Below, in pieces: positions 5,704-49,670 of a stretch of 56,010 nucleotides of DNA. Each line of letters opens with the position of its first letter. The first letter of the stretch is position 1. A model generated the notes under the pieces. The model was not told the origin of the DNA and searched no databases. It saw nothing but the letters and a program-made list of their open reading frames with translations. The position numbers and the translations under genes were made by a program. Source of the stretch: Phocaeicola plebeius (lineage in GTDB: Bacteria; Bacteroidota; Bacteroidia; Bacteroidales; Bacteroidaceae); the NCBI RefSeq assembly GCF_003437535.1, contig NZ_QSQT01000026.1:1-56010 (forward strand), written 5' to 3'.

Positions 5704-6528
5704 ATGGAAAATTCGATGAAGCTTATTATGCTGGGTACGGGAAATGCGGCCACCGTAGCCTGCTACAATACCTGTTTTGCCTTGTGCCGGGAGGATAAAT
5801 ACTTTTTAGTGGATGCCGGAGGAGGTAACGGCATTCTGTCGCAGTTGCAGAAGACACATATCCCGTTGTCAGGCATTCATGAGATATTTGTGACGCATGC
5901 ACATACTGACCATATATTGGGTGTGATATGGATGATTCGTATGGTGGCTCAGGCTATTCAGAAAGGAGAGTACCAGGGCGAACTGCGCATATATGGGCAT
6001 GACAAGGTGGTACAGGTGCTCGACTGGATTTGCCGGATGACTTTACCCAAGAAGATTGTGGCACGCCTAGGAGAAGAGATACTGTTGTGTGAGGTGAAGA
6101 ACGGAGAAAAATTTCAGGCCATCGGCCTGGAAGTGGAATGCTTTGACATTGCCTCTACAAAGGAGAAACAGTTTGGTTTCCGTACCTGTCTTCCTGATGG
6201 ACAATCGCTGGTTTGTCTGGGTGATGAACCTTATAACGCATGCAACCAGATGTATGTGGAAGGAGCCGACTGGCTGCTGTGTGAGGCGTTCTGCTTGTAT
6301 GAAGACCGGGAACGGTTCAAGCCCTACGAGAAGCATCATAGCACGGCTTTGGATGCTGGCCGGTTAGCAGCTCAGCTTGGAGTGAAGAATCTGCTGCTGT
6401 ATCACACGGAAGACAAGACACTGGCTACCCGTAAAGAGCGCTATACGGCAGAAGCAGCTTTGCAGTTTAACGGTAAGGTCTATGTACCGGAAGATTTGGA
6501 GGAAATTTTACTACGGGGTAATGAATGA
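5704..6528 (+). CDS. MBL-fold metallohydrolase, ribonuclease Z-like
   Basis: A 274-residue cytoplasmic protein of the metallo-beta-lactamase fold. The zinc motif THAHTDH is at about residues 64-70, with CLGDEP and HHSTALDAGRLA later supplying further metal ligands, an arrangement like RNase Z and arylsulfatase-type hydrolases. Possible roles are tRNA 3' processing or phosphodiester or ester hydrolysis; the sequence does not decide, and a longer canonical RNase Z would be expected elsewhere in the genome. It is a single gene with its own -7 element and a shared downstream terminator. Its last codons fall inside the first unit of a 22-bp repeat array that begins at 6508, so the C-terminal residues (LLRGNE) are partly encoded by the repeat. 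Confidence 0.8.
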   Translation: MENSMKLIMLGTGNAATVACYNTCFALCREDKYFLVDAGGGNGILSQLQKTHIPLSGIHEIFVTHAHTDHILGVIWMIRMVAQAIQKGEYQGELRIYGHDKVVQVLDWICRMTLPKKIVARLGEEILLCEVKNGEKFQAIGLEVECFDIASTKEKQFGFRTCLPDGQSLVCLGDEPYNACNQMYVEGADWLLCEAFCLYEDRERFKPYEKHHSTALDAGRLAAQLGVKNLLLYHTEDKTLATRKERYTAEAALQFNGKVYVPEDLEEILLRGNE

Positions 6529-6595
6529 ATTACTACGTAGTAGTCGGTCTGTTACTACGAGGTAACGGAGGAACTACTACGTAGTAGTTTAAAGG
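6508..6595. repeat. 22-bp-period palindrome array A (4 units)
   Basis: Four units start at 6508, 6530, 6552 and 6574. Each has a palindrome centred at 6514.5, 6536.5, 6558.5 and 6580.5. The last is a perfect 18-bp palindrome (AACTACTACGTAGTAGTT, 6572-6589), the second a perfect 12-mer (TACTACGTAGTA), and the third GTTACTACGAGGTAAC. The first unit overlaps the end of the MBL gene. No unit is seen on either side. Confidence 0.85.
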
Positions 6596-6622
6596 GCATT
6601 TGAAGAGGTTTTAAATGAAACA

Positions 6623-6663
6623 AGAAAGGCGTTCCGATTGTGTTGTCGGAACGCCTTTCTTTA
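6623..6663. terminator. Bidirectional terminator, MBL gene and EEP gene
   Basis: Perfect 15-bp stem AGAAAGGCGTTCCGA / TCGGAACGCCTTTCT (6623-6637, 6646-6660) with an 8-base loop, between convergent genes. Confidence 0.85.
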
Positions 6664-6682
6664 TGAAAAGATATATTTTCTC

Positions 6683-7732
6683 TTACTTCATTACCTTGAC
6701 AAAATAGGTGAGGGTCGGCAAGTGGTCGCTGAATCCATTCTGGAATGTAGTACCCGAGAATGTACGAAGTGGATACCCTTTGTACTTTCCTTCCTTTTGA
6801 AGCAGGAATGGACGGTTGAATACTTCGCTCTTCCAGAATTTCAATGTACTGCGGTCTTTGCCAATCAGGTTACCTGATATAATCTGCTGGTCAAACAAAT
6901 TCCATTGGTTCTGGTAGCAGAGAGAACCGATACCCTGATCGTACAATTTCCAGGTAGCATTGTAATATCCGTCAGGTTTTACCTCCTTGATGTTCTTTTT
7001 AGCGCCCAGTACCTCGCTACAGCTCTTGTTGAACGGGTCATCATTCAAGTCACCCACAATGAGCACTTTTGCTTCCGGGTTCTGTGCATGGATAGAATCG
7101 CCAATGTGTTTCACGATGCTGGCAGCAAATTCTCTCAGCGGAGAAGAAGCGGATCCACCGTAGCGTGAAGGCCAGTGATTTACAATCAGGTGAAACGGTT
7201 CCCCGGCCAGTATACCACTTACCAGCAGAATGTCGCGGGTTTTATAGTGCGGCATATCCGGCTTGTTGAAAGGATAGATTCTGGCATCAATCAGCTTGAA
7301 CAGTTTCGGGTTGTACAAGGCTGCTACGTCGATACCTCTGTGGTCGGGCGATTCGAAATGTACGATTTCATATCCCGTTCCACTGATGGGAGCTGTTTTT
7401 GTCAGGTCTTCCAATACTTTCCGGTTTTCCACTTCTGAGATACCGATGATAGCAGGGCCTGCCGGACAATAATCTCTTCCCAATTGTGAGATTACCTTGG
7501 CAATATTCTGTAACTTTTGTTCATACTTGGTCTGAGTCCATTCATACTTTCCTTCCGGAGTGAAATCATCATCCCCTTCGTTGTTAGGGTCGTCCACCGT
7601 GTCCCAAAGGTTTTCTAAATTATAGAATGCGGCTGCATAAACACCCAGTCTGTCTTGTGCAAACAGACTGGTGGTATATACACAAGTAATGAACAAAGTG
7701 AAAATAAGCAATCGTTTATTCATAACTTTCAT
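6683..7732 (-). CDS. Endonuclease/exonuclease/phosphatase (EEP) family protein, secreted
   Basis: A 349-residue protein with a type I signal peptide (hydrophobic stretch then SLFAQ, cleavage about residue 25) and a complete EEP catalytic domain: FYNLENLWDT near 37 (Asn), GISEVEN (metal Glu), VNHWPSRYGG (His), VGDLNDDPF (Asp/Asn), and SDHLPTLTYF at the C-terminus (Asp-His). This fold cleaves phosphodiester bonds in nucleic acids or phosphates in nucleotides, lipids or inositols. It is the last gene of a five-gene minus-strand set, 15 bases after the DUF5689 lipoprotein. With a nuclease lipoprotein at the other end of the set, a role in breaking down imported or surface-bound nucleic acid is a reasonable inference. 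An ATG three codons inside (7723) is an alternative start. Confidence 0.85.
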   Translation of the reverse strand: MKVMNKRLLIFTLFITCVYTTSLFAQDRLGVYAAAFYNLENLWDTVDDPNNEGDDDFTPEGKYEWTQTKYEQKLQNIAKVISQLGRDYCPAGPAIIGISEVENRKVLEDLTKTAPISGTGYEIVHFESPDHRGIDVAALYNPKLFKLIDARIYPFNKPDMPHYKTRDILLVSGILAGEPFHLIVNHWPSRYGGSASSPLREFAASIVKHIGDSIHAQNPEAKVLIVGDLNDDPFNKSCSEVLGAKKNIKEVKPDGYYNATWKLYDQGIGSLCYQNQWNLFDQQIISGNLIGKDRSTLKFWKSEVFNRPFLLQKEGKYKGYPLRTFSGTTFQNGFSDHLPTLTYFVKVMK

Positions 7733-7747
7733 GGTTTGATGTGTGCA

Positions 7748-9142
7748 TTAATTGCTTGGAGTGGGTTCAATGGTTGTACCTCCGTCACCACCGGTGCTGC
7801 CACTTCCACTTCCTGGAACATAGAGTTTGACGCTGAATAATCGCAACCCATACGTGTTATCTGCTGCGGTTGTATAAAATTCTAAAGTTGTATTATTTGA
7901 AATATTTATGTCTTTAATTTCAAACTCAAAAGGTTTGTTACCTTCTTGATTTTCTCCACTGACCACTTTACTCGATAAGGGGAGTTCTGTACCGTTGCAT
8001 TTAATTTTCAGTGTATTTAGGTCTTGTGTTTCTCCTGAATTATAAACATTGCATCCTACCTGATATTTTAATGTGGCTTTAGTAGCACCTTGTCCGTTTA
8101 TGCCTTTTACTTTCAGATTAATGTCAGATCCTTTTGGGAACCACACGTTAGCAGGATAAGCGGAGCCTATGCGTACATCAGCCTTTCCTGATTCATCTTC
8201 GAAGAATCCAGGATTATCAAACCCTGTGTATTCGGCGATTTTAGGCCAGTAATTTCCACTCTTTTCAGGAGTTCCAAAAGATTCTTGGAATAAAACCGTT
8301 TCACCACTCGGAGTTTCTCCGCCTTCATTCCCACCTTCTTCATTACTTCCAGTAAAGTCGCTGACATCATTAGCTGTACGTAAAGTAAGCTGCCAAGTAC
8401 CTCTGAATCTTCCTAAGATACCTGTTACATTACCTTTTCCTTCTGGAAGTTTATTACCTGCAAAGCTGGCATAATTGCTGGTACGAATCATGATAGTATT
8501 TCCATGACTGTCGGTAATATTTTCTTCACCATAACCATCTTCTGGAGCAAAGATACCCTTACCACCGTTCTGGAAAGTAACTCCGGTAAATTGCACTAAT
8601 TTGAATTTATAGTTATCGGGAGCAGCGTTGATGGTACTGATGTCATCAATTACAACAGGCTTGGCATTTTCTGGATTAGCCCATCCGTCTTTGCTGACAT
8701 GTTTTTCGAAATCTTCCCACGGTGTACGATACAAGTATCCTTCCGGATGTCCTAATTGCTGTTCGTCTCCATATACGGAAATGCTCAATCCGTTCAGGTC
8801 TACATATACAGTCTGGCCTACCGGATAATAATTGTACACACTGCTTTGGTCTACTTCCATTTCAATGGCACCCGTTTCATCCTGCAAGTAGATTTTCTTG
8901 AAGATGTTTCCTGATTCATCGTTACCTGTGATGACGGCTTTGAGTACCTGGTCTTGCGTGATGATGATAGGAACGTCCTGAGTAGCTGCTGCATTCTGTG
9001 TACGCAATTCTGAAATCGTGATATTGGCTGCCGGACCTGTGTATTCAGGTTCTGTCAAGAGAGGAGCATCATAGTCTCGTTCACATGCAAAGAGAGCGAG
9101 TGAGGCAATGAGTGGCAGACTGATATTTCTTAAAAGTTTCAT
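7748..9142 (-). CDS. DUF5689 lipoprotein with OB-fold-like domain
   Basis: A 464-residue lipoprotein: signal peptide with lipobox LFAC at about residues 17-20 and acidic or mixed residues after the Cys, likely surface or periplasmic. Residues about 40-265 match what I know of DUF5689, an OB-fold-like region (KAVITGNDESGN, IYLQDETGAIEM, VGQTVYVDLNGL). Residues about 280-445 form a second beta-rich domain of jelly-roll character, beginning ETVLFQESFGTP. A Gly/Ser/Thr-rich tail follows. It lies 28 bases after the TonB-dependent receptor and 15 before the EEP gene. OB folds often bind nucleic acid or oligosaccharide, which would suit a ligand-capture partner of the receptor in place of a SusD protein; this is inference. 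Confidence 0.75.
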   Translation of the reverse strand: MKLLRNISLPLIASLALFACERDYDAPLLTEPEYTGPAANITISELRTQNAAATQDVPIIITQDQVLKAVITGNDESGNIFKKIYLQDETGAIEMEVDQSSVYNYYPVGQTVYVDLNGLSISVYGDEQQLGHPEGYLYRTPWEDFEKHVSKDGWANPENAKPVVIDDISTINAAPDNYKFKLVQFTGVTFQNGGKGIFAPEDGYGEENITDSHGNTIMIRTSNYASFAGNKLPEGKGNVTGILGRFRGTWQLTLRTANDVSDFTGSNEEGGNEGGETPSGETVLFQESFGTPEKSGNYWPKIAEYTGFDNPGFFEDESGKADVRIGSAYPANVWFPKGSDINLKVKGINGQGATKATLKYQVGCNVYNSGETQDLNTLKIKCNGTELPLSSKVVSGENQEGNKPFEFEIKDINISNNTTLEFYTTAADNTYGLRLFSVKLYVPGSGSGSTGGDGGTTIEPTPSN

Positions 9143-9170
9143 ATATTCTGAGTTTTATGTAGGTTAATGA

Positions 9171-11888
9171 TTAAAAACGGTAGCTCACATTCAGGAAACA
9201 GTTGATGCCCTGCATGTAGTAGTATTTTCCTCCAAAGCGTTCCGGATGGTCAAGGTCAAATCGTCCCTGTTCGTATCCTCCGGTACAAATATCTTTCTTG
9301 TTCAATACATTGTTCAGAGAAAGATTGAAGTTGATAGATTGTCTTCCAGGCAAGTAGAAAATTTTTCCGATAGACAAGTCTAATGTATAGGCTGCCGGGA
9401 AACGTTCTTGTGTGGTCAACTGCTTGAAGGCATCGTAATACTGGTTATACGGAGTTACTTCTGTGTAGCTTGAAGCCAGACGGCGGAGGGGAGCAGCTTC
9501 GATGTAGTTGCGTGCAAATCCGTTCAGGTTGGCTCCCAGGAACCAGTATTTGATGAAGTAACGGATTCCGAATGTACCGGCAATCTGTGGAACTCCACCT
9601 ACGTAAACATCCTTCATGTATACTTGTTCTCTTTCTACTATCTTTCCGTTTTCAGAGTTCTTGATACCGTCAGGGTTGTTGCTGTAATAATATTCACCTA
9701 CGGTTCCAGCCAGGTCGAAGCTCCAATGGTCATCCAGTTTGTAAGTAGCTCCCAGCTCAATACCTCTGTGAATGCGGTTTACTCCATACAACACGTGGTT
9801 GATGAATGTTCCTTCAATGCCGTCATAGTAGCTGCTGCGTTCCATCTGGTCATAGAAATTAGTCTGGAATACTCCGATACGTCCGGCCAGGTGAGGAGTA
9901 GAGAAGATGTAGTTGATGTCGGCAGAGAGAACCCGTCCACTCTTCATGTCATCAATGGTACGGTCTGTGATACGCGGTGATACGTATGCTTCGTTGGGCA
10001 ACGGAGCTTCACTACCATAACTGATGTTGGCGTTAATCATGTGACGTCCGTTGAACTTGTAGGTCAGTCCTCCCTTTACCATTAAGTCTGTGAACTGATG
10101 GCGAGCACCTTTGCCGAAAGAACTGTCCGGATAACGTCCGTTACGCATTTTACCATCACGCTGGAAGCTGGTATAAGTCAGCTTCATTCCGTAATAGTAA
10201 TCCCAATAACGTGAATGATACTGATTCACTACCCAGGCATTCAGTGAATAAATGTTCAGGTTATAGTTGTAACCGAAAATTCCTTCTTCGTATACTTTTC
10301 TCTGCGGGCGGTTCAAGTCGTTCTGAATTTTGTCCGGATCACCAGAGAAGTCTTGTTCTGCAAATTTATCAATATCCAGCACATATTCTGCTCCCAGCAG
10401 GTCGGCTACGGTCTTGAACTGGCGTGACTGGGTGTAGCGTGCACCGACTCCGGCTGTGATGTCGAAATGACGGCTCATGCGTGCGTTTAAAGTAGAGTTG
10501 AATGAAGTTTCCAACAAGTCACTGCGACGTTCTTCCAGCATGTAAACAGCTGCTCCGTTACCATTACGAATGTTGTTGGCATTAGCCAGGTAGAGGTCAT
10601 CCCAGTTGATTTGTGTAAAGCTGGTCTGGTTAGTACGCCACAACTCTTTGTATCTTAGTTGTACCATTTCATCTTCAAAATACGAAGGAAGGTAGCGATA
10701 GTAATCCGGGCGAGGGTCAGGAGCATTGTACCAGTTCAGGGCCGTATTACCGTAGCGGGCATAATGTGCTCCCACACCTGTAGTCAGCGTCATATTATCG
10801 TTGATTTTCCAGATGTGCGAAATGATGGCAGTCGGGTCGAATGCCGTTACCACCTTTGCATTTCTTTTTTCTCCGTTCTGGTATCCCCAGTTCGGGTTGT
10901 AAAGGTAGTTTCCTGTCAGTTCATACACTTCGCGGTAAGAACTGCCTTGCTGTCCACGCTGTACCGGTGATACGAAAGCCACCATTGACAGGCTATGTTC
11001 TCCTCCTTTCCATTGCTTTTCAGCAGAGAAGGCGAAAGAAACGTTCTTGTAGAAAGTTCCGTCGATGTTACCTTCATTCGAATAGCGTCCGCCAATAGAG
11101 GTAGTGAATGCCCATCCGTTATCTTTCAGTCCGGTAGAGTAGGTAAACATGCCACGGAGATAATAGTTTCGGTTGGTATAGCTTAAGGTTAACTTTCCTC
11201 CAGGAGTATAGCTGCTGGCACGCATATTGATGTTTTCCGTACCTCCCAACTCACCAAAAGTAAAGGACGAAGGAGCTGTGAAGTTGGTGACATCACCGTT
11301 ACGTGTCATGTCGTTCAGTGCGCCTACCGCTGCATAGTTGAATACACCCCTATTCTGGTCGTTGAATTCCACGCCATTGATGTATTTAACCTCCTGTGTG
11401 CTGTTGTATCCACGTGGAGAGAAGCGTGCAGGTGAAAGCTGATAGGCAGCTTTGTTCAGGAAAATATCATTTGACAGAATCACGGTAGAGCTGACATCCT
11501 GCCCGGAGGTCTCCACGTCGTCATCCACCATGCCGGCATCGATGATGCCAATCATAGACACGTCTTCGTTTGCGTTAAGTTCAGTTACTCGGATAGGTTT
11601 TAGTTCAGTTACGCCTAAGTTTTCTACTTCAATGGAGACACTCTTGGGCGTAATCATTACGGAGTTAAGCTGAATGACGTAAGTTCCCGGCTGAATATTT
11701 CGGATGGTGAAGTTTCCGTCCGCGTCGGTTGTGACTTGGCGGTTCAGTTCTGTCACCGTCACAATTACACCTGGAATAGGGTCATTGCTTACTGCTCCGA
11801 TCACACTTCCTTTCACGCTTACATTTCCTTGTGCAAAGACAAGGCAAGGAAGGAAGAATGCCATGAAGAACAGTAATTTGTGTTTCAT
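9171..11888 (-). CDS. TonB-dependent outer-membrane receptor with carboxypeptidase-like N-terminal domain
   Basis: A 905-residue outer-membrane transporter. Residues 1-20 are a signal peptide ending VFAQ; about 22-100 form a CarboxypepD-regulatory-like domain (VSVKGSVIGAVSNDPIPG, TDADGNFTIRNIQPGTY); about 115-230 a plug domain; the rest is a beta-barrel rich in aromatic strands, ending in FLNVSYRF with the terminal Phe expected for Bam-dependent assembly. It is not a typical SusC and no SusD-like gene is adjacent. Instead its neighbours are two nuclease-type genes and an OB-fold lipoprotein, so nucleotides, oligonucleotides or a bound cofactor are possible substrates. Energy would come from a TonB-ExbBD system like those at 38455 and 41292. 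A hairpin at 11931-11972 precedes it. Confidence 0.88.
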   Translation of the reverse strand: MKHKLLFFMAFFLPCLVFAQGNVSVKGSVIGAVSNDPIPGVIVTVTELNRQVTTDADGNFTIRNIQPGTYVIQLNSVMITPKSVSIEVENLGVTELKPIRVTELNANEDVSMIGIIDAGMVDDDVETSGQDVSSTVILSNDIFLNKAAYQLSPARFSPRGYNSTQEVKYINGVEFNDQNRGVFNYAAVGALNDMTRNGDVTNFTAPSSFTFGELGGTENINMRASSYTPGGKLTLSYTNRNYYLRGMFTYSTGLKDNGWAFTTSIGGRYSNEGNIDGTFYKNVSFAFSAEKQWKGGEHSLSMVAFVSPVQRGQQGSSYREVYELTGNYLYNPNWGYQNGEKRNAKVVTAFDPTAIISHIWKINDNMTLTTGVGAHYARYGNTALNWYNAPDPRPDYYRYLPSYFEDEMVQLRYKELWRTNQTSFTQINWDDLYLANANNIRNGNGAAVYMLEERRSDLLETSFNSTLNARMSRHFDITAGVGARYTQSRQFKTVADLLGAEYVLDIDKFAEQDFSGDPDKIQNDLNRPQRKVYEEGIFGYNYNLNIYSLNAWVVNQYHSRYWDYYYGMKLTYTSFQRDGKMRNGRYPDSSFGKGARHQFTDLMVKGGLTYKFNGRHMINANISYGSEAPLPNEAYVSPRITDRTIDDMKSGRVLSADINYIFSTPHLAGRIGVFQTNFYDQMERSSYYDGIEGTFINHVLYGVNRIHRGIELGATYKLDDHWSFDLAGTVGEYYYSNNPDGIKNSENGKIVEREQVYMKDVYVGGVPQIAGTFGIRYFIKYWFLGANLNGFARNYIEAAPLRRLASSYTEVTPYNQYYDAFKQLTTQERFPAAYTLDLSIGKIFYLPGRQSINFNLSLNNVLNKKDICTGGYEQGRFDLDHPERFGGKYYYMQGINCFLNVSYRF

Positions 11889-11930
11889 AAAAAATAATTG
11901 TTAGTTTAGTGTTATTTTATAGGGGGTGAA

Positions 11931-11972
11931 AGAGAACATGAAAAAGTTTTATAGAGCTTTTTCATGTTCTCT
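11931..11972 (-). terminator. Hairpin between fimbrillin-like gene and receptor gene
   Basis: Perfect 16-bp stem AGAGAACATGAAAAAG / CTTTTTCATGTTCTCT with a 10-base loop, 23 bases after the stop of the upstream gene. The following minus-strand sequence is pyrimidine-rich but not a clean T-run, so it may be a leaky terminator or an mRNA-stabilising hairpin that sets the ratio of the upstream to the downstream genes. Confidence 0.6.
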
Positions 11973-11995
11973 TGTGAGGGGAATGGATCAAATTG

Positions 11996-13924: not shown

Positions 13925-13967
13925 ACTAATTTATTTAGAAAGTTTGTAGATTCTGTATCAGATAGAT

Positions 13968-17686: not shown

Positions 17687-17992
17687 CGTATATAGATTTT
17701 AAAGAGTATAATATCCTAGTTTTTTCTTTACCCTTAGTAAAGGTTCTTACAAATTAAAGAAAAAAAAATCTGATTTTCATACTTTTTCAGAAAAAAACTA
17801 TAAGGTAAGAATCATTTTTAGAAATAGAAAGACGAGGAATGTGGCTCAGAAGGGCTTGTAGAGGGGGTGAAAAAAACGTCTTTGCGTTTGAAAGAAAACG
17901 CAAAGACGTTTTGATCAAAACGCAAGTGCGTTTGAAGTAAAATGTACTTGCGTTTTACCTCAAACGCACTTGCGTTTTTCTTTAACAAAAAT
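17687..17992. other. Intergenic region mgtE to DUF349 gene
   Basis: 306 bases. Its part next to mgtE is taken up by the repeat array at 17873-17982. The part from 17687 to 17872 is AT-rich with no recognised promoter element or small gene. Confidence 0.5.
17873..17982. repeat. 22-bp-period palindrome array B (5 units)
   Basis: Units start at 17873, 17895, 17917, 17939 and 17961, with palindrome centres exactly 22 bp apart (17881.5 to 17969.5). The consensus core is AAACGCAAGTGCGTTT. Unit 1 (AAACGTCTTTGCGTTT) is the exact reverse complement of unit 2 (AAACGCAAAGACGTTT), and unit 3 of unit 5 (AAACGCACTTGCGTTT), so larger hairpins or cruciforms are possible. It ends 10 bases from the mgtE stop. 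Confidence 0.9.
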
Positions 17993-19333
17993 TTAGGATA
18001 ATAATACGGTAATTCCCATGTACATGAGCATACCGATAATGTCGTTGGTAATGGAGATAAACGGTCCGGTGGCAATGGCCGGATCGATTTTCAGTTTTTC
18101 CAGTGTCATGGGCACCAGTGTGCCGAAAATGGAGGCAAACATGACCACGGCAAACAGACTGATGGATACCGAATAGCTGACTGTAGCCGTAGCTCCGAAA
18201 CGGATGAAGTTGTAGATATACACCAGCATGGAAATGATGGTGGCGTTGATAAGGGCTACAACGGATTCTTTCAGCACCTGCTTGAAGGTGTTTTCGGCGT
18301 TCAGTGAGCTGTTGGCCAGACCTTGCACGACCAATGCGGAGGACTGGGTTCCTACGTTTCCTCCCGTTCCACCGATAAGGGGAATGTAAAGCGCCATTTC
18401 CGGATGAGCGGCAAAGGTAGAGTCAAAGTTGCCCAGAATCATGGAGTTACCGATTCCACCGAGCATACCGATGAGCAGCCACGGAAGGCGCGCGGTGGTC
18501 TGGCGGAACACATTGTCGTCTGTTTCTACGTCCTGTGACAAACCGGATGCCAACTGGTAGTCGCGTTCGGCCTGTTCACGAACCTCGTCCATTACGTCGT
18601 CTACGGTGATGCGTCCTACCAGACGGCCGATGCTGTCGACCACGGGAACGGCCACCAAGTCATACTTTTCAATGGTCTGCACCACCTCTTCAATGGGTGT
18701 ATCCACATGGACGGAAATAGGGTCCTTCTTCATCACGTGTTTCACCTTGGAAACCGACGGACTGGTAATCATCTTTTTCAGCGGGAATACGCCGCGCAGA
18801 CGTTCATCGTCGTCTACCACATATACATAATATATCTCGTCCATTTCTTCTGCCTGCAGTCGCATTTCGCGCAGGCATTCGGGCATACTCCAGTTCTCGT
18901 TCACAATCACCATTTCCGTACCCATCAAACCACCGGCGGTGTCTTCGTCGTATTTCAGCAAGTCGACGATGTCGCCTGCCTGTTCGATGTCTTCAATGTG
19001 TGAAAGCACCTCTTCCTGCTTGTCCTCGTCCATTTCACGGATGATGTCTACGGCATCGTCCGAATCCATGTAGTCGACAAAGCGCTTGGCGATGGTTTCA
19101 GGGGGAAGTATTTCGAGGAATTTCTTTCGTGCATCCTCGTCCATTTCAATCAGTACGTCGGCTGCCGTTTCGTTGTCCAGCAGCAGGTAGATGAAGCGGG
19201 CATCTTCTGCGTCCAGCTCGTTGCACAGCTCGGCGATGTCGGCCGGATGCAGGTCCTTGATGACTTCTTTTAACTGGTCGGAATCTTTCTTCTCAATCAG
19301 TTCGGTGACTAATTTAATATCTTCGCTATTCAT
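17993..19333 (-). CDS. mgtE: Magnesium transporter/channel MgtE
   Basis: A 446-residue magnesium channel. Residues about 1-125 are the MgtE N domain of short helical repeats (LHPADIAELCNELD, FLEILPPETIAKRFVDYM); about 130-255 hold two CBS domains (EIYYVYVVDDDERLRGV, YDLVAVPVVDSIGRLVGRI) that sense intracellular Mg2+; about 280-446 form five membrane helices with the selectivity motif GGTGGNVGTQSSALVVQGL. Length and order are standard for the family. It follows ksgA by 55 bases on the same strand and probably shares its promoter. No M-box-like leader was seen immediately upstream. Confidence 0.95.
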   Translation of the reverse strand: MNSEDIKLVTELIEKKDSDQLKEVIKDLHPADIAELCNELDAEDARFIYLLLDNETAADVLIEMDEDARKKFLEILPPETIAKRFVDYMDSDDAVDIIREMDEDKQEEVLSHIEDIEQAGDIVDLLKYDEDTAGGLMGTEMVIVNENWSMPECLREMRLQAEEMDEIYYVYVVDDDERLRGVFPLKKMITSPSVSKVKHVMKKDPISVHVDTPIEEVVQTIEKYDLVAVPVVDSIGRLVGRITVDDVMDEVREQAERDYQLASGLSQDVETDDNVFRQTTARLPWLLIGMLGGIGNSMILGNFDSTFAAHPEMALYIPLIGGTGGNVGTQSSALVVQGLANSSLNAENTFKQVLKESVVALINATIISMLVYIYNFIRFGATATVSYSVSISLFAVVMFASIFGTLVPMTLEKLKIDPAIATGPFISITNDIIGMLMYMGITVLLS

Positions 19334-38209: not shown

Positions 38210-38311
38210 TGTTTTTTACGTTTCCTTTCCGGAAAACCTATGTTTTTCATGGCGGAAACGTAGGTTTTCCCTGCGTGAACCCTACGTTTCCGCACAGGGA
38301 AACATAGAGCA
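38210..38311. repeat. 22-bp-period palindrome array C (3 full units plus 2 half-sites)
   Basis: Palindromes of the form AAAC-nnnn-GTTT are centred at 38239.5, 38261.5 and 38283.5 (the third with one mismatch). In the same register the right half GTTT lies at 38220-38223 and the left half AAAC at 38300-38303, so the array fades at both edges. Unit 2 reads GGAAACGTAGGTTTTCC; unit 3 contains CCCTACGTTTCC, close to its reverse complement. Confidence 0.75.
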
Positions 38312-42092: not shown

Positions 42093-42100
42093 TAAGAACA

Positions 42101-42568
42101 ATGGCTAAATTATCATACAAAGTATCATACTACGTATTCTATGTATGCATCGCACTGATTTTGGTAGTGCTGGGCATGTTCTACGGAGTAGGATACAGCG
42201 AAACAAATGCAGCTGGTTTGGTTGAACCGGCTAATACTCCAGCCCTGATGTACCTGATGTACGGTATGTTTGCTGTCTGTGTCGCTGTTACAGTTATTGC
42301 AGCAGTACTTCAGTTTGGTGCTGCATTGAAAGATAATCCGAAAGGCGCTATCAAGTCTTTGTTTGGTCTGATCCTTTTGGTCGTATTATTAATTATAACA
42401 TATAATATCGGTTCTAACGTACCTGTATTGTTGGGTGGTGGTACTGCTTACGAAAATGCAACAATGTTGAAAGTTACAGATATGTTCCTGTATTCAACTT
42501 ATGCATTGCTTGTTGTTGCAGCAATTGGTACATTGCTGAACCTGACAGGTATTTTCAAACAGAGATAA
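42101..42568 (+). CDS. Four-helix membrane protein of the exb operon
   Basis: A 155-residue protein of unknown function with four hydrophobic segments (about 8-28, 50-75, 87-108, 125-148) and short loops. It lies 8 bases after exbB and 40 before the first exbD. The position suggests an accessory subunit of the proton channel. I do not recognise a named family. Acidic residues within the helices are rare, so a direct proton path is not obvious. Confidence 0.75.
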   Translation: MAKLSYKVSYYVFYVCIALILVVLGMFYGVGYSETNAAGLVEPANTPALMYLMYGMFAVCVAVTVIAAVLQFGAALKDNPKGAIKSLFGLILLVVLLIITYNIGSNVPVLLGGGTAYENATMLKVTDMFLYSTYALLVVAAIGTLLNLTGIFKQR

Positions 42569-42608
42569 TATCATTCATTGAGTTTAATAATTTAATAAAG
42601 TAAGTAAA

Positions 42609-43196: not shown

Positions 43197-43198
43197 TC

Positions 43199-43663
43199 AT
43201 GGGAAAATTTAATAAGACTGGTAAGCGTGGCATGCCGGAGTTGAATACCTCTTCTTTGCCTGACCTTATCTTTACCATGTTGTTCTTCTTCATGATTGTA
43301 ACAACCATGCGTGAAGTTACATTGAAGGTTCAGTTCAAGGTTCCTCAGGCTACAGAGTTGGAAAAATTGGAAAAGAAATCTTTGGTGTCTTTCATCTACA
43401 TCGGTAAACCGATGCCGGAGTTCCAGAAAAAGATGGGTACTACCGACCGTATTCAGTTGAACGATAAATTCTCTGAATCTTCAGAAGTTCAGGACTACAT
43501 CTATCAGGAACGTGAAAACATGAAAGAGGAAGACAAACCGTTTATGACTGTTTCCCTGAAGGTGGATGCAAAAACCAAGATGGGTATCGTAACAGAAGTA
43601 AAACAGGCTCTTCGTCAGGCATACGCACTGAAGATTAACTATTCAGCTACTCAGCGTCAGTAA
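43199..43663 (+). CDS. exbD: ExbD/TolR-family protein (second of two)
   Basis: A 154-residue ExbD with a membrane helix LPDLIFTMLFFFMIVTTM (about 19-36) that keeps the essential Asp, and a periplasmic domain ending VTEVKQALRQAYALKINYSA, which fits the usual ExbD fold. It differs clearly in sequence from the first copy, so the two probably have distinct roles rather than being a recent duplication. A terminator follows at 43680-43713. Confidence 0.9.
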   Translation: MGKFNKTGKRGMPELNTSSLPDLIFTMLFFFMIVTTMREVTLKVQFKVPQATELEKLEKKSLVSFIYIGKPMPEFQKKMGTTDRIQLNDKFSESSEVQDYIYQERENMKEEDKPFMTVSLKVDAKTKMGIVTEVKQALRQAYALKINYSATQRQ

Positions 43664-43679
43664 TAGTTTTATAAATATG

Positions 43680-43713
43680 AAAAAAGGCTGTCTCTTATGA
43701 GGCGGCCTTTTTT
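43680..43713 (+). terminator. Terminator of exb operon
   Basis: AAAAAAGGCTGTCTC / GAGGCGGCCTTTTTT hairpin with a T-run. Confidence 0.8.
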
Positions 43714-43925
43714 GTTGTATTATGGGATAGAGGGAATGATTTCAAATCAGAAGACCGTATTTCTAAATGGGTGATTAACCTTTGAGTACAATGATTTGAA
43801 GGGAGTATTTCAATAGAAATAACCTACCAGTGTAGTGTATAAGAAATTTTTCTATACAGAGGATTACAGGACTTTTAGCGTGATTTTGTTAGTCCGGTTT
43901 GCAGATGATATTTAACGTATCCACA
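43714..43925. other. Intergenic region exbD-rplS
   Basis: About 210 AT-rich bases between the exb terminator and the rplS terminator. No gene, repeat or promoter was recognised. Confidence 0.4.
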
Positions 43926-43960
43926 AAATAAAAGGAGACACCCAATGGTGTCTCCTTTTA
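43926..43960 (-). terminator. Terminator of rplS
   Basis: Stem AAAAGGAGACACC / GGTGTCTCCTTTT with CAAT loop; T-rich on the minus strand after the stem. Confidence 0.8.
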
Positions 43961-43986
43961 TTTTGTCTTTTTCAGGGAATACTGAA

Positions 43987-44340
43987 TTACACGTTTGCAC
44001 GTTTTTCCTGAATTCTGGCTTTCTTACCGGTAAGTGCACGCAAGTAGTACAATTTAGCGCGACGAACTTTACCAACTTTGTTGACAGTGATGCTGTCAAT
44101 AGCCGGAGATTCCAATGGGAAGATACGTTCAACACCCACTGTTCCTGACATTTTACGTACAGTGAAACGTTTCTTTTCACCGTGACCTGAAATTTTGATA
44201 ACAACACCGCGATACAACTGTACACGTTCCTTGCTACCTTCAACGATACGGTATGCTACTGTGATTGTGTCACCAGCTTTGAATGAAGGATGCTGTTTGC
44301 CAGTAGCAAATGCTTCTTCTGCAATTTTAATTAAATCCAT
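43987..44340 (-). CDS. rplS: 50S ribosomal protein L19
   Basis: A 117-residue ribosomal protein at the interface of the two subunits. The start is ATG 44340 ([12 protein letters not shown]). Family signatures are [50 protein letters not shown], and [18 protein letters not shown] near the C-terminus. The frame opens 16 codons further upstream, but those codons have no homology. Here it is a single gene with a near-ideal promoter (44426-44457) and its own terminator, rather than part of a trmD operon. Confidence 0.97.
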
Positions 44341-44425
44341 GTTTTGTAATAAATTAAATTGTTTGATCGTTACAACGCAACATATCAAGTAACTCTTCTT
44401 TGACAGCGATTGCGCGAAAGCGGGG

Positions 44426-44457
44426 CAAAGTTAGTGTTTTTCTGCGAGCTAGCCAAA
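44426..44457 (-). promoter_or_regulatory. Promoter of rplS
   Basis: On the minus strand TTTG (44457-44454), a 20-base spacer and TAACTTTG (44433-44426), exactly the Bacteroidetes -33/-7 layout. The transcript leader would be about 80 bases and contains GTTAC and GTAAC arms that can form a hairpin. Confidence 0.8.
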
Positions 44458-44567
44458 TGTTTTCTACCTATTTTATTAAAAAATGAGAAGTCTTTTGGAT
44501 AGCTTTTATCATTCTTTTGAGCATGTTCCTTTTTTCCGTATTTTTGACTGCAAATAAACCTTGTTTT

Positions 44568-45350
44568 ATGAATTATCTCAATGTTAGACTTGTAAAAAGT
44601 GCAGTTGCCGGTGTGTTGGCCGGGTGGCTGCTGGCCAGCTGTAGCTCAGGTTATTCGCTGGCAGGTGTGGAAGGCGGAAGGGTGGCCATTACTGATGTGT
44701 ACGACCGTAAACCGGATGCCGAAGCGTTGAATATCTTGAAACCTTATCAGCAGAAAGTAGATAGTATTATGTCGCCGATTATCGGACATTCGGCAAAGAA
44801 CCTGACTGCATACCGTCCGGAGTCTCCGCTGTCTAATCTGATGGCCGATGTACTTCGTCAGGCAGCAGTGCGGGCGATTGGTAAGCCGGCTGATGTAGCT
44901 GTCATGAATATGGGGGGTATCCGGAATGCAATGCCTGAAGGTGAAATTACCTTTGGAACGGTGTATGAGATTGCTCCGTTTGAGAATGCCTTGTGTGTGC
45001 TGACAATGGACGGGGCCACATTGAAGGAGTTGTTCGGACAAATAGCTTCTGTACATGGCGAGGGAATTAGTGGCGCCGCTTTAAAAATAGATGGAGAGGG
45101 AAACCTCTTGGAAGCAAAGGTGAATGGCCAGCAGATTGATGCAAAGAAAACCTATACGGTAGCTACCATAGATTATCTGGCCGAGGGAAATGATAAGATG
45201 GAAGCGTTCCGTCGGGCTTCTTCCAAAATATTCCCGAAAGATGCGTTGTTGCGTAATTTGTTGCTTGACTATGTAAAGCAGTGTGAGCAGAAAGGACAAT
45301 TTGTAACTTCGCAGGTAGAAGGAAGAATAAAAGTAAGTGCGTCCAATTGA
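44568..45350 (+). CDS. 5'-nucleotidase C-terminal domain lipoprotein
   Basis: A 260-residue lipoprotein (MNYLNVRLV start, lipobox LLASC at about 25). It consists of the substrate-recognition half of UshA-type 5'-nucleotidases: SPLSNLMADVLRQAA near 95, VAVMNMGGIRNAMPEGEITFG near 118 (split here for length: VAVMNMGGIRNAMPE), FENALCVLTMDG, and TYTVATIDYLAEGND near 205. The metallophosphoesterase half is the next gene. In UshA both are on one chain with the catalytic half first, so here the domains are separated and the order is swapped. It overlaps the next open frame's TTG, and the next ATG lies 14 bases on, so both are co-translated and probably assemble. Confidence 0.85.
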   Translation: MNYLNVRLVKSAVAGVLAGWLLASCSSGYSLAGVEGGRVAITDVYDRKPDAEALNILKPYQQKVDSIMSPIIGHSAKNLTAYRPESPLSNLMADVLRQAAVRAIGKPADVAVMNMGGIRNAMPEGEITFGTVYEIAPFENALCVLTMDGATLKELFGQIASVHGEGISGAALKIDGEGNLLEAKVNGQQIDAKKTYTVATIDYLAEGNDKMEAFRRASSKIFPKDALLRNLLLDYVKQCEQKGQFVTSQVEGRIKVSASN

Positions 45351-45364
45351 AAAATAGAAAAGAG

Positions 45365-46207
45365 ATGAAAAAGATATATTGTTTATGTCTGGCGTGCCTG
45401 CTGGTGAGTGTGATGGCCGCGCAGTCGGTAAAAGAATTGTATATATTTCATACGAACGACATGCATAGTCGTATCGAACCCTTTGCCTCTTATTTCCCTG
45501 ATACGGTACTGGCCGGAAAGGCGGGTGTGTTGCGCCGGGCGGCTTTTGTGAAAGAACAGCGTCGTGAGCACAAAGATATGTTGCTGTTCGATTCCGGGGA
45601 TTTTTCTCAAGGAAGTCCCTATTATAATTTGTTTAAAGGAGAGGTGGAAATCAAGATGATGAATGAGATGGGGTATGATGCAGGTACGATTGGAAATCAT
45701 GAGTTCGATTTTGGCCTGGACAATATGGCCCGCTTGTTCAAGATGGCCAACTTCCCGATTGTATGTGCCAATTATGACGTGACAGGTACCGTGCTGGAAG
45801 GTTTGGTAAAGGAGTATACCGTCATTGAACGCGATGGAATACGTATTGGTGTGTTTGGACTGGGACCGGAACTTGACGGTCTGGTGGCGCATGCCAATTA
45901 CGGGAATGTAAAATTTGAAGACCCTGTGTCTGAAGGCCAGCGTGTAGCCGACTTGCTGAAGAACCAGGAACATTGTGACTTGGTGATTTGCCTGTCGCAT
46001 TTGGGATGGAAAGGTGAACCTTATTCGGATATAGAACTGATAGAGAATACCCGTAACATTGACATTGTATTAGGCGGACATTCTCATTCCTTCTTTGAAG
46101 TTCCAGAGTTTTATAAGAATCTTGACGGAATAGAGGTGCCTGTGCAGCAGATGGGAAAAAGTGCGGCATTTGTCGGGCGTATGGTTGTCAAGATGCAGAA
46201 AAATTAA
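45365..46207 (+). CDS. 5'-nucleotidase metallophosphoesterase subunit, exported
   Basis: A 280-residue exported metallophosphoesterase: signal peptide ending about VMAAQS, then FHTNDMHSRIEPF (metal Asp/His), LLFDSGDFSQGSPYYNLFKG, TIGNHEFDFGLDNM (metal Asn/His), VICLSHLGWKGE (His), and DIVLGGHSHSFF (metal His residues). This is the catalytic half of UshA-type 5'-nucleotidases, which remove phosphate from extracellular nucleotides. The C-terminal specificity half is the preceding gene. I use ATG 45365; TTG 45347 is the alternative. The hydrolase fusion gene follows after 14 bases. Confidence 0.88.
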   Translation: MKKIYCLCLACLLVSVMAAQSVKELYIFHTNDMHSRIEPFASYFPDTVLAGKAGVLRRAAFVKEQRREHKDMLLFDSGDFSQGSPYYNLFKGEVEIKMMNEMGYDAGTIGNHEFDFGLDNMARLFKMANFPIVCANYDVTGTVLEGLVKEYTVIERDGIRIGVFGLGPELDGLVAHANYGNVKFEDPVSEGQRVADLLKNQEHCDLVICLSHLGWKGEPYSDIELIENTRNIDIVLGGHSHSFFEVPEFYKNLDGIEVPVQQMGKSAAFVGRMVVKMQKN

Positions 46208-46221
46208 ACAGATAGGATAGA

Positions 46222-49191
46222 ATGAAAAGACGGATTTTGTGGTGTATATTGTGTGTTTGTCTGGCCTCGACTAGTCTCTTTGCACAAGAACCTGCGCTCT
46301 TGAGCCGGGTACACGACACGGAAGCCTGCCGGAAATGGGTAGACGGGCAGATGGAGAAAATGACGCTGAAACAGAAAGTGGGTCAGTTGTTCATTTATAC
46401 TCTCCAGCCGGTGACAAACCAATACAGCAAGAATGTTTTGCGAAAGATGGTCGATGATTATGGAGTAGGAGGGCTGTTATTTACCGGTGGAGAACTTCGG
46501 AAGCAGGTGCAGATGACCAACTATGCCCAGGCTCATGCGTCGGTGCCTTTGATGGTGACTTTTGATGGTGAGTGGGGATTGGGAATGCGCTTGAAAGATA
46601 CCCCTTCTTTTCCCTACAATCGTGTGTTAGGATGTATACAGAATGATTCACTGCTTTATGAATATGGTAAAGAAGTGGCTCGCCAGTGTCGTCTGATAGG
46701 TGTGCAGATTAATTTTGCACCGGTAGCCGATGTGGATAACAATCCCAATAATCCGGTAATCAATTTCCGCTCTTTTGGCAGTGACCCGAAGAGGGTGGCC
46801 GAAAAAGTGGCAGCTTATGTAAAAGGATTGGAGGACAATGGCGTAATGGCGGTGTGTAAGCATTTTCCCGGGCATGGAGATACAGAAATTGATTCACACA
46901 ATGCGTTGCCTGAATTAAACTTTGATCGCGCTCGTCTGGATAGTATCGAGTTGTATCCTTTTAAGAAAGCCGTTGAGGCGGGAATTGGCGGTGTGATGGT
47001 AGGTCATTTGCATGCTCCGAGTTTAGGTGAAGGACCTGCTTCCATTTCGCAGGAAGTAATTATGCGTACGCTGATTGATGAATTGCGCTTTCATGGACTG
47101 GTGGTGACGGATGCTCTGGAGATGAAAGGCATTGCCGGGCATGATGATGTGTGTGCCCGTGCCTTGATAGCAGGAAACGATGTGGTTTTATCTCCCCGTA
47201 ATTTGAAAAAAGAAATTGACGGTGTGATGTCGGCGCTTAAAAAAGGTCGTCTGTCGGAAACTGATATTGACCGGAAATGCCGGAAAGTACTATCATTTAA
47301 ATATGCGCTGGGACTTTCTTCCTGGAAAAAAGTGGAAGAAGAAGGACTTGCAGAAAAACTGGTAACGCCGGAGCTTCTGTCGCTTCAGCAGGAATTGTCA
47401 AAAGCGGCAGTGACGGTACTGAAGGATTCTTCGTCATTGGTTCCGCTTGATTTATCTGTATCGGGTACGGTGCTGTTGAGTGTCTCTCCTTCCTTGTCGG
47501 AAGCTTATCCGTTTTATCATCAGTTGAAGCAGACTTTTCCGGTTGGCTGGCTGCATGCGAATGTAGATTCATTGGATGCCGTGGAGGCACGTTTGCGCCC
47601 GACACAGCGAGTATTGGTGGCCTTACATACCGATAAGGTGGAACCGTATGCAGCTTTGCTGGAAAAGCTGGCCAAAGACAAGCCTTTGGCTTTGATTTGC
47701 TTTGGCGATATGAAGATGCTGGAAAAGATTCCGGAAGTGGTTCGTCATGCTTCTACTGTAATACTGGCACATTCTGATGAGAAGTTTGTGCAGCGTCATG
47801 TGGCCGATTTGTTCTTAGACAATGCGTATGCTGACGGACGTTTGTCTATTCCGTTGTCGGGACTGTTTAAGGCTGGGGATGGACTGACTGTCGACCCCGA
47901 AACTCCTCGTCAATATAGTCCGGAGGATGTGGGGATGAACGCTTCGATATTGTCGCAGATAGACAGTATTGCAGAAGAAGGTATCCGGCTGAAGGCTTAT
48001 CCAGGATGTCATGTAATGATCTTGCGGGAAGGTCTTCCGGTCTACAACAAGTGTTTCGGTAGTTATACCTATGAGGGTAAGGAACAGGTCAAGGAAAATA
48101 GCTTGTATGACCTGGCCTCTTTGACGAAAGTCACGGCTACGCTGCTGGCAGTGATGAAGCTTTATGATGAGGGAAAATTCGGACTGACCGACTGGGTAGC
48201 AGATTATGTGCCTATACTGAAAAAAACGGATAAGGCGCGTATTACGGTCCAGGATTTACTTTTCCATGAATCCGGGTTACCTGCCTACTGGCCTTTCTAT
48301 GAGGAAGCTGTGGATATGAAGTCCTGCAAAGGAGGGCTGTTCCGTAAGAAGCCCGATAAAAATCACACGTTGAAACTGGCCGAGAATGTGTATGCCTGCA
48401 ATGATTTCCGTTATAATCCGGAGTGGGTATCGCATGTTCCTTCTGCTGAATATCCGCTTCAGGTAGCAGACAGTTTGTTCTTGAGAAGTGATTTCAGTAA
48501 GAATATAGTGGAGCAGATTGTAAAACTTCCTTTGAAGGGGAAGTCCTATCGTTACAGTTGCCTGAACTTTATGCTGCTGAAAGAAATGGTGGAAAAGATA
48601 GCGGGTATGCCAATGGATATGTATTTGGATAGCGTATTCTATGCCCCGATGGGACTGCGTCATACAGCCTTTTTGCCCTTACGTAAATTCCCGAAGGAGC
48701 AGATTGTACCTTCTGTAGAGACTGATTTCCTCCGTGGGGGCAAATTGCAGGGATTTGTGCAGGATGAGGCGGCCGCTTTCATGGGTGGCGTATCCGGAAA
48801 TGCCGGTTTGTTTTCTACTACGCAGGATGTGGCAAGAATAGCACAGATGTGGCTGGACAAAGGAATCTGCGGTGACCGGAGATACCTTAGCCGGGCAACT
48901 TGTGAGCTTTTCACTACATTGAAGTCGCGTGACAGTCGGCGGGGCTTAGGTTTTGATAAACCCGATACGGAACATACGGACAACAGTCCTTGTAGTCCAG
49001 AAGCGCCAGCTTCGGTGTTTGGACATACAGGTTTCACGGGAACTTGCGTGTGGATAGACCCGGATAACGAGTTGATTTTTGTGTTTTTGAGCAACCGAAC
49101 CTATCCTTCTGTCTATGAACAGAATAACCTGGTTCGTTATAACATACGTACGCGAATGCAGCAGGTGATGTATCAGTCCATTTTGCATTGA
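46222..49191 (+). CDS. GH3 beta-N-acetylglucosaminidase (NagZ-like) fused to serine beta-lactamase-like hydrolase
   Basis: A 989-residue exported two-enzyme protein. After a signal peptide (ending SLFAQ) residues about 40-380 are a GH3 NagZ-type domain: VCKHFPGHGDTEIDSH near 213 carries the catalytic His, and VVTDALEM the nucleophile Asp297. Residues about 385-570 resemble a GH3 C-terminal domain without clear catalytic motifs. Residues about 590-985 are a serine hydrolase of the class C beta-lactamase/esterase fold: SLTK (Ser633, Lys636), YSC at 778-780 where many relatives have Y-x-N, and HTGFTG at 935. The two activities fit trimming of peptidoglycan fragments (GlcNAc-anhydroMurNAc bond and a peptide or ester bond). 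It is third in the nucleotidase set, 14 bases after its neighbour. Confidence 0.88.
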   Translation: MKRRILWCILCVCLASTSLFAQEPALLSRVHDTEACRKWVDGQMEKMTLKQKVGQLFIYTLQPVTNQYSKNVLRKMVDDYGVGGLLFTGGELRKQVQMTNYAQAHASVPLMVTFDGEWGLGMRLKDTPSFPYNRVLGCIQNDSLLYEYGKEVARQCRLIGVQINFAPVADVDNNPNNPVINFRSFGSDPKRVAEKVAAYVKGLEDNGVMAVCKHFPGHGDTEIDSHNALPELNFDRARLDSIELYPFKKAVEAGIGGVMVGHLHAPSLGEGPASISQEVIMRTLIDELRFHGLVVTDALEMKGIAGHDDVCARALIAGNDVVLSPRNLKKEIDGVMSALKKGRLSETDIDRKCRKVLSFKYALGLSSWKKVEEEGLAEKLVTPELLSLQQELSKAAVTVLKDSSSLVPLDLSVSGTVLLSVSPSLSEAYPFYHQLKQTFPVGWLHANVDSLDAVEARLRPTQRVLVALHTDKVEPYAALLEKLAKDKPLALICFGDMKMLEKIPEVVRHASTVILAHSDEKFVQRHVADLFLDNAYADGRLSIPLSGLFKAGDGLTVDPETPRQYSPEDVGMNASILSQIDSIAEEGIRLKAYPGCHVMILREGLPVYNKCFGSYTYEGKEQVKENSLYDLASLTKVTATLLAVMKLYDEGKFGLTDWVADYVPILKKTDKARITVQDLLFHESGLPAYWPFYEEAVDMKSCKGGLFRKKPDKNHTLKLAENVYACNDFRYNPEWVSHVPSAEYPLQVADSLFLRSDFSKNIVEQIVKLPLKGKSYRYSCLNFMLLKEMVEKIAGMPMDMYLDSVFYAPMGLRHTAFLPLRKFPKEQIVPSVETDFLRGGKLQGFVQDEAAAFMGGVSGNAGLFSTTQDVARIAQMWLDKGICGDRRYLSRATCELFTTLKSRDSRRGLGFDKPDTEHTDNSPCSPEAPASVFGHTGFTGTCVWIDPDNELIFVFLSNRTYPSVYEQNNLVRYNIRTRMQQVMYQSILH

Positions 49192-49260
49192 TACTATTTA
49201 GACATGATATAAATTGGGTAGAAAATGCAAAGTGGATGTGACAACTGATTGGAAAAAGAT

Positions 49261-49268
49261 TAACTTTG
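49261..49268 (+). promoter_or_regulatory. -7 element of ferredoxin gene
   Basis: TAACTTTG, perfect TAnnTTTG, with TGTG at 49237-49240 and a 20-base spacer. The ATG is 44 bases downstream. Confidence 0.65.
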
Positions 49269-49312
49269 CACTATCAATTTAGGACTAATAATAACTTAAC
49301 TTTTTTACTACA

Positions 49313-49480
49313 ATGGCTTACGTAATTAGTGACGATTGTATCGCTTGCGGTACTTGTATCGATGAATGCCCGGTTGGAGCAATCTCAGAAGGTGATAAAT
49401 ATTCAATCAATCCGGACGCTTGCACAGAATGTGGAACTTGTGCTGACGTTTGTCCTTCTGAAGCAATTCACTTGGGATAA
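49313..49480 (+). CDS. Ferredoxin, 2x[4Fe-4S]
   Basis: A 55-residue ferredoxin (MAYVISDDC at the start) with two complete cluster motifs, CIACGTCIDECP and CTECGTCADVCP, each CxxCxxCxxxCP, related by the internal duplication typical of clostridial-type ferredoxins. It carries electrons at low potential, for example for pyruvate:ferredoxin oxidoreductase or hydrogenase. It has its own -7 element and a strong terminator, so it is a monocistronic, probably highly expressed gene. Too short for most open-frame cut-offs, it is easily missed. Confidence 0.95.
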   Translation: MAYVISDDCIACGTCIDECPVGAISEGDKYSINPDACTECGTCADVCPSEAIHLG

Positions 49481-49502
49481 TCGAATCGTCTGTATGACAC
49501 AC

Positions 49503-49541
49503 AATAAGGGAATTCTTTTTGGAGAATTCCCTTATTTTTTT
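49503..49541 (+). terminator. Terminator of ferredoxin gene
   Basis: Perfect 14-bp stem AATAAGGGAATTCT / AGAATTCCCTTATT followed by T-run. Confidence 0.85.
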
Positions 49542-49560
49542 GTTCTTGAGGAGGCTTGGA

Positions 49561-49670
49561 AAAACACACTTGTGTTTGAACTGAAATGCAAGTACGTTTT
49601 GATTAAAACGCAAAGGCGTTTGACATGAAATGTACTTGCGTTTAATTGAAAACGTCCTTGCGTTTTGTGG
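49561..49670. repeat. 22-bp-period palindrome array D (5 units)
   Basis: Units start at 49561, 49583, 49605, 49627 and 49649, palindrome centres 49569.5 to 49657.5, exactly 22 bp apart. Cores are AAACACACTTGTGTTT, AAATGCAAGTACGTTT, AAACGCAAAGGCGTTT, AAATGTACTTGCGTTT and AAACGTCCTTGCGTTT. The fourth core is identical to the fourth core of array B. It lies between two terminators of convergent genes. Confidence 0.9.

What the first reader, a model, noticed from the sequence alone, without database searches (positions are those of the whole stretch)
6508..49670. A dispersed family of intergenic arrays with palindromes exactly 22 bp apart
Four separate intergenic spots carry 3-5 imperfect palindromes whose centres are spaced by exactly 22 bp (arrays at 6508-6595, 17873-17982, 38210-38311, 49561-49670). 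The palindrome sequence is locus-specific (TACTACGTAGTA; AAACGCAAGTGCGTTT; AAACnnnnGTTT) but the period is invariant. That pattern means units within an array evolve together while the spacing is under selection or set by the copying mechanism. They occur between convergent, divergent and co-directional genes, so they are not promoters as such. 22 bp is about two helical turns, so a protein bound to each palindrome would line up on one face of the DNA. Candidate roles: nucleoid or segregation protein binding, RNA hairpin arrays acting on mRNA ends, or a minimal mobile repeat. I do not recognise a described family.
Basis: seen in the sequence. Interest (0 to 1): 0.8.

Follow-up and report, generated by a model that had tools for sequence, protein, structure and literature searches.

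The report
Palindrome arrays phased at 22 bp
Some gut Phocaeicola bacteria carry dozens of short intergenic arrays of palindromes spaced exactly 22 base pairs (about two DNA turns) apart, kept by selection and probably acting as boundaries at the ends of genes; the protein that would bind them is not known.

Summary
In detail: all four arrays are in the window, and 22 bp is the period that stands out. They are not one family. Class A, AAAC-8-GTTT-6, makes arrays 2 and 4; in the nearest genome held, G001, 77 perfect triplets have 6/6 spacers against 78 when spacers may be 0-20 bp. Class B, AAAC-nTAn-GTTT-10, makes array 3. Array 1 was found at one locus only.

Between species arms differ 3%, spacers 24-38%; synonymous sites of one species pair differ 32%. 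So arms and spacing are under selection. Cores do not covary and their centre is anti-palindromic, which favours DNA sites over RNA stems.

Class A prefers gene 3' ends, has A-run...T-run ends, and 85% of 104 array-facing gene ends score terminator-like inside the array. REP-type transposases are absent from all 14 array-bearing genomes sampled.

Best guess: protein-bound two-way transcription boundaries; protein unidentified. Ten literature searches found no description.

The parts
6508..6587 (.). Array 1: four YTAC..GTAR palindromes (14 bp, 8-bp spacers), period 22; overlaps the stop of the + gene ending at 6528
   Evidence: Ortholog in G001, changed but in register in G024, eroded in G008
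17874..17977 (.). Array 2: class A, five units AAAC-8-GTTT, 6-bp spacers, directly downstream of the - strand gene 17993-19333 (Mg transporter-like, name recalled)
   Evidence: five units at the same place in G001, G008, G024
38212..38311 (.). Array 3: class B, three AAAC-nTAn-GTTT units between two half units, T-run and A-rich ends, between a divergent kinase-like gene and a TonB-like gene (names recalled)
   Evidence: closely similar ortholog in G024 and in L308
49562..49665 (.). Array 4: class A, five units, between convergent genes and between two separate hairpin-plus-T stretches (about 49508-49537 and 49699-49738)
   Evidence: four units at the orthologous place in G008 and G024

Best explanation
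Class A arrays are two-way transcription boundaries at gene 3' ends. Each 16-bp unit, AAACGYM-NN-KRCGTTT, is a two-fold site for a sequence-specific dimeric DNA-binding protein. Four to six sites at exactly 22 bp put the dimers on about one face of the DNA, where they can bind together, bend the DNA and block RNA polymerase from either side; the end units, running into A and T tracts, add an intrinsic-terminator hairpin in each direction. Shown: exact spacing, constrained arms, independent half-sites, 3'-end preference, terminator-like ends. Inferred: the protein, joint binding, the block. Class B and the other 22-bp families would be arrays of the same geometry for other factors; class B is not tied to gene ends.
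For: Spacing: 77 of about 78 triplets in G001, 378 of 399 pairs. Selection: arms differ 15/488 in 12 ortholog pairs (9/328 in the 8 pairs that align well, 1/112 in the 3 G008-G024 pairs) against spacers 111/294, 48/198 and 34/66; 4-fold synonymous sites of G008/G024 differ 32.1% over 98 genes; 46 of 48 array-by-species comparisons among the close species keep the array, so arm conservation is not just an effect of picking AAAC/GTTT. DNA rather than RNA: n2 is Y and n7 is R independently; pairing in the core is at or below chance (z 0.2, -2.8, -3.0, -14.6 in 322 units); T-G is not preferred over C-A along the transcript (67 against 79); ortholog changes are mostly one-sided. Boundary: of 116 arrays 57 tandem, 28 convergent, 12 divergent, 19 at contig edges, none inside a called gene; 51 of 57 tandem arrays nearer the stop, median 38 bp; terminator-like signal in 85% of 104 array-facing gene ends, in 20% of 60 stretches before the array, 9% after it, 37% of 200 array-free 3' ends.
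Against: No protein was found and no binding data exist. The diversity of cores within a genome is unusual for one factor. End units pair better than inner ones (n2-n7 58% against 46%), which is an RNA-type sign. In tandem regions class B arrays also lie mostly nearer the stop, so nearness to stops may partly be promoter avoidance. Array 4 in the window lies between two other hairpin-plus-T stretches, so it is not needed as a terminator there. The terminator scan is a simple one of mine, and A-tract palindromes score in it by construction. Genes were called by a home-made ORF caller.
Confidence: 0.42

Rival explanations
1. RNA-level compound terminators or 3'-end stabilisers: the transcribed array folds into hairpins that stop polymerase or block decay, with no dedicated DNA-binding protein. 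Arms are locked because each arm can pair with many others.
For: 3'-end preference and A-run/T-run ends; terminator-like score in 85% of 104; fewer separate terminators before arrays, 12/60 against 74/200, p 0.018; end units pair better; in class B spacers two steps apart tend to be reverse complements (z 4.0 in 36 non-redundant arrays).
Against: No covariation and an anti-palindromic centre in class A; no G-U preference along the transcript; RNA hairpins do not need exact 22-nt steps or the same arm letters at every locus; A-run and T-run are nearly symmetric even in tandem arrays (mean 2.18 and 2.61); class B ends have the opposite polarity, T-run to A-run.
Confidence: 0.25
2. Nucleoid or topology sites, like BIMEs in function: the phased, bent array binds a nucleoid protein or gyrase at places where supercoils gather. 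Location at gene ends follows from where positive supercoils collect.
For: Dyads about every 11 bp and array length near 80-130 bp; in an exploratory bend model array curvature is highest at periods 21-22 (1.15, 1.14) against 1.03-1.09 at other spacings and 1.04 shuffled (parameters recalled from memory, matrix composition my own); arrays spread round the G008 chromosome, 37 exact four-unit arrays in all ten 400-kb bins.
Against: Strict arm letters are more than bendability needs; any repeat near two turns bends in phase; terminator-like ends are not explained.
Confidence: 0.18
3. Mobile or formerly mobile repeats: arrays were spread by a transposase and have since diverged, the arms being its binding sites.
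For: Lineage-specific cores; 58 of 158 non-independent site comparisons lack the array, mostly in distant species; class B has inverted ends and a nearly fixed layout.
Against: PF01797 in 0 of 14 class A genomes, although four of those are under 84% complete; the best in-phase match between paralogous class A arrays over variable positions is 78%, no outlier; 46 of 48 comparisons among close species are occupied. Other transposase families were not searched. The one exact class B duplicate in G008 lies at rRNA-linked places.
Confidence: 0.1

Closest known systems
REP/BIME elements with RAYT transposases (PMC2817692, abstract seen; PMC3733652, listing and passages seen)
   Same: Many intergenic palindromic units per genome, regularly spaced, at gene ends, proposed protein binding and termination roles
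   Different: No PF01797 gene in 14 of 14 array genomes; the commonest unit has neither GTAG nor CGTC; units are 16 bp in 22-bp steps and not copies of each other
BrickBuilt MITE of Porphyromonas gingivalis (PMC4596501, abstract and passages seen)
   Same: Same order; intergenic; tandem 23-nt units that gain or lose whole units; predicted stem loops
   Different: BrickBuilt has tandem direct repeats without spacers, leader and tail with IS-like ends, 19 copies. Class A has variable cores and spacers and no leader or tail
Iteron and operator arrays, for example plasmid Rep iterons at about 22 bp (recalled, no call)
   Same: Protein sites repeated at about two helical turns
   Different: Iterons are direct, near-identical repeats at one origin; these are two-fold sites at dozens of loci
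Bidirectional intrinsic terminators (recalled)
   Same: A-run, hairpin, T-run at both ends of class A; position past stops
   Different: Four to six units instead of one hairpin; invariant arms and spacing; no covariation

Membership tests
REP/BIME (RAYT-spread) | Y1_Tnp-type transposase (PF01797) in the genome | tested here: not met
   0 of 14 class A genomes; 22 of all 60 genomes searched
REP/BIME (RAYT-spread) | GTAG or CGTC tag at one end of the unit | tested here: not met
   Commonest class A unit, core GCAAGTGC (98 of 585 units), has neither; some other cores contain CGTC by chance of sequence
REP/BIME (RAYT-spread) | Near-identical copies at many loci | tested here: not met
   Best in-phase match over variable positions 78% in G008, G024, CAMFND, DWVR
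MITE / BrickBuilt | Tandem near-identical units with IS-like terminal inverted repeats | tested here: inconclusive
   Class A: not met. Class B has inverted ends; target-site duplications and matching IS were not searched
CRISPR | Near-identical repeats with unique spacers of about 30 bp | tested here: not met
   Spacers are 6 bp and units vary
Intrinsic terminator | Hairpin followed by T tract past a stop codon | tested here: met
   85% of 104 array-facing ends by a simple scan; termination itself not testable here
Structured RNA | Compensating changes in stems | tested here: not met
   Class A cores: pairing at or below chance, ortholog changes mostly one-sided. No Rfam hit at the arrays
Protein-bound operator array | A protein that binds the units | not testable with these tools
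   Only the sequence signature of independent half-sites

The most novel reading that the evidence does not exclude
A so far undescribed kind of chromosomal element defined by geometry rather than by sequence: several unrelated two-fold motifs in one genome have each been built, site by site and not by recent duplication, into arrays locked to two DNA turns, each with its own oligomerising protein, class A marking gene ends and class B other boundaries including regions upstream of rRNA genes.
Probability: 0.28. Interest if true: 0.87.

Novelty: new variant of a known kind. Interest (0 to 1): 0.7.

Why it matters
Bacteroidota are major gut bacteria whose nucleoid proteins and transcription boundaries are poorly known (recalled). 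One culturable species has at least 37 class A arrays and about 35 class B arrays (38 matches). They are a ready DNA bait for an unknown, probably abundant protein, and a natural series of variants for testing how helical phasing affects binding, termination or supercoiling.

Tried and rejected
RAYT/REP: rejected on PF01797. CRISPR: rejected, 6-bp spacers and varying units. Known RNA family: Rfam found only three tRNAs in the window. Concerted evolution within arrays: pooling species suggested it, within-species tests did not. Inter-unit hairpins in class A: not favoured within species, reverse-complement matches of neighbours are at or below the null. Ori/ter exclusion: no clear pattern. A strict class B pattern found nothing in 21 genomes; a looser one found 28-39 matches each in G001, G008, G024 (matches, so a few arrays count twice). 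First dyad scan of G008 was spoiled by runs of N and redone. Replacement of one array class by another at the same locus: two cases (class B in G008 where G024 has class A; CTCC..GGAG palindromes in G021 at the array 4 place), too few to use. Ortholog pairs: 30 share both flanks; only the 12 of equal unit number entered, four of them under 75% identical inside and perhaps out of register. In some searches and 26 rows from minus-strand matches show the wrong side, so absence was not read from them. The class B spacer pairing was first z 5.3 for one position pair with orthologs included; after dropping 9 of 45 similar arrays and pooling both equivalent pairs it is z 4.0. Several de novo hits at other periods fall in gene-like stretches.

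Full report
WHAT IS THERE. The four arrays are at the stated coordinates, with units at exact 22-bp steps. In dyad scans of the window 22 stands out: 12 positions reach 17 of 24, none at 16-21 or 23-29, 8 at 33 (dyads also lie 11 bp apart), one or two at 30, 31, 34, 35, 37. The window's own assembly is not held; the nearest, G001, shares 35% of its sampled 31-mers.

FAMILIES. Class A is AAAC-8-GTTT with 6-bp spacers (arrays 2, 4). G001 has 193 triplets with up to 2 mismatches and 0 for the reversed pattern. Exact triplets occur in 14 of 60 relatives: 134 in G024, 100 in G008, 94 in G009, 77 in G001, 47 in G004, 13 in G036, 1-7 in eight others. With spacers free from 0 to 20 bp G001 has 78. The 8-bp core differs between lineages. 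Class B is AAAC-nTAn-GTTT with 10-bp spacers (array 3): 39 matches in G024, 38 in G008, 28 in G001, 3 in G018 (other core), 1 in G036, 0 in G004, G009, G012 and in the control. Its layout is nearly fixed: T-run half unit, three units, half unit A-run; of 45 arrays 36 have GTTT and 41 AAAC exactly in the flanking half units. Array 1 has one match in 20 genomes. Other palindromes at 22 bp (AGTACT, GACACGAACGTGTC) and one at 21 (CACACTGTG) occur in G008 or G024. G012 and G018 have arrays at 21, 23 and 40 bp. So one period is shared by unrelated motifs among close relatives, but not by every species.

HOW THEY EVOLVE. Array 2 has five units at the same place in the window, G001, G008 and G024. Thirty pairs of arrays share both flanks. 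Among the close species (window, G001/CAMFND, P. plebeius, G008, G024) 46 of 48 array-by-species comparisons are occupied; over all held sequence 100 of 158 are occupied, the empty ones mostly in distant species. Unit number changes by whole units. In the 12 pairs of equal unit number arms differ 15/488, inner core 60/244, spacers 111/294; in the 8 pairs at least 75% identical inside, 9/328, 19/164, 48/198; in the 3 G008-G024 pairs, 1/112, 15/56, 34/66. Four-fold synonymous sites of G008/G024 differ 32.1% over 98 genes. Spacers are therefore near or above neutral and arms strongly held. Core positions 6 and 11 change almost only C-T and A-G. Detection requires AAAC/GTTT, which favours conserved arms; the 46 of 48 occupancy limits that bias. 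Array 1 keeps its register in G024 though its letters changed, and is eroded in G008. Adjacent spacers are identical in 0 of 179 cases (G008, G024, CAMFND) and 1 of 29 (DWVR), and no array is a copy of another. 39 of the 116 arrays had no species label and were left out.

DNA OR RNA. In 322 units of the close species, Watson-Crick pairing inside the core is at or below chance: n1-n8 z 0.2, n2-n7 z -2.8, n3-n6 z -3.0, n4-n5 z -14.6. The two central bases are nearly always both purines or both pyrimidines. n2 is mostly Y and n7 mostly R, as in two half-sites of a symmetric site. Along the transcript T-G (67) is not preferred over C-A (79), and ortholog changes are mostly one-sided. Against a pure DNA reading, end units pair better than inner ones, and class B spacers two steps apart tend to be reverse complements (z 4.0, 36 arrays), which suggests hairpins in RNA or in replicating DNA. 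End units also have a preferred orientation (65 of 103, p 0.01).

WHERE THEY SIT. Of 116 distinct class A arrays 57 lie between co-directional, 28 between convergent, 12 between divergent genes, 19 at contig edges, none inside a called gene. Intergenic regions of at least 130 bp in 1.06 Mb of the same kind of DNA number 162, 30 and 78 (Fisher p 0.0009 for divergent, 0.0001 for convergent). In tandem regions arrays start a median 38 bp past the stop and 51 of 57 are nearer the stop. Class B: 16 divergent, 16 tandem, 8 convergent, 4 edge, 1 inside a called gene; not different from baseline (p 0.20), different from class A (p 0.0008). Class A ends run into A and T tracts, mean 2.2 and 2.6 extra bases against 0.6-0.7 inside. 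By a simple hairpin-plus-T scan 85% of 104 array-facing gene ends score within the array, 20% of 60 before it, 9% of 104 after it, and 37% of 200 sampled array-free 3' ends.

COMPARISON. REP/BIME is the nearest kind, but PF01797 is absent from all 14 class A genomes, the described tags are missing from the commonest unit, and units are not copies. BrickBuilt of P. gingivalis is a tandem 23-nt direct-repeat MITE with leader and tail. Ten searches of an open-access library, one with unit sequences, found no description; passages of two further papers that the last search listed, PMC5771137 and PMC5217627, describe nothing alike. Subscription papers and preprints were not searched.

VERDICT. A real, dispersed and selected system. 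Best reading: protein-bound two-way transcription boundaries for class A (0.42); rivals: RNA terminators (0.25), nucleoid or topology sites (0.18), old mobile repeats (0.10).

Noticed in passing
L321, L323, L330, L295 (G008 near 789797, 963177, 3781078, 4031786): Class B arrays lie beside rRNA genes: in L321 and L323 between a FopS sRNA and the 16S gene, in L330 beside FopS with a 5S gene nearby, in L295 about 1.8 kb before a partial 16S match. A class A array lies about 0.7 kb upstream of the fourth 16S gene of G008.
   Followed up: partly
G315 (phylum sample): Seven matches to the reversed control pattern TTTG-8-CAAA, itself a palindrome: perhaps another array family in a distant genome.
   Followed up: no
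G018 near 1170763 (in L234): Tandem array of a 40-bp unit containing GAAAGCTTCCCCAC and its partner arm, about seven copies.
   Followed up: no
G018 near 1058179 and 1155936: Arrays of GTAAGATTATTAATCTTAC palindromes with a 23-bp period.
   Followed up: no
L308 around 1450-1600: In this ortholog of array 3, two spacers have become exact reverse complements of each other, as if copied through a hairpin.
   Followed up: partly
L108 (Anaerolineales MAG record): A four-unit AAAC-8-GTTT array with near-identical units in a record outside Bacteroidota; chance repeat, transfer or binning error.
   Followed up: no
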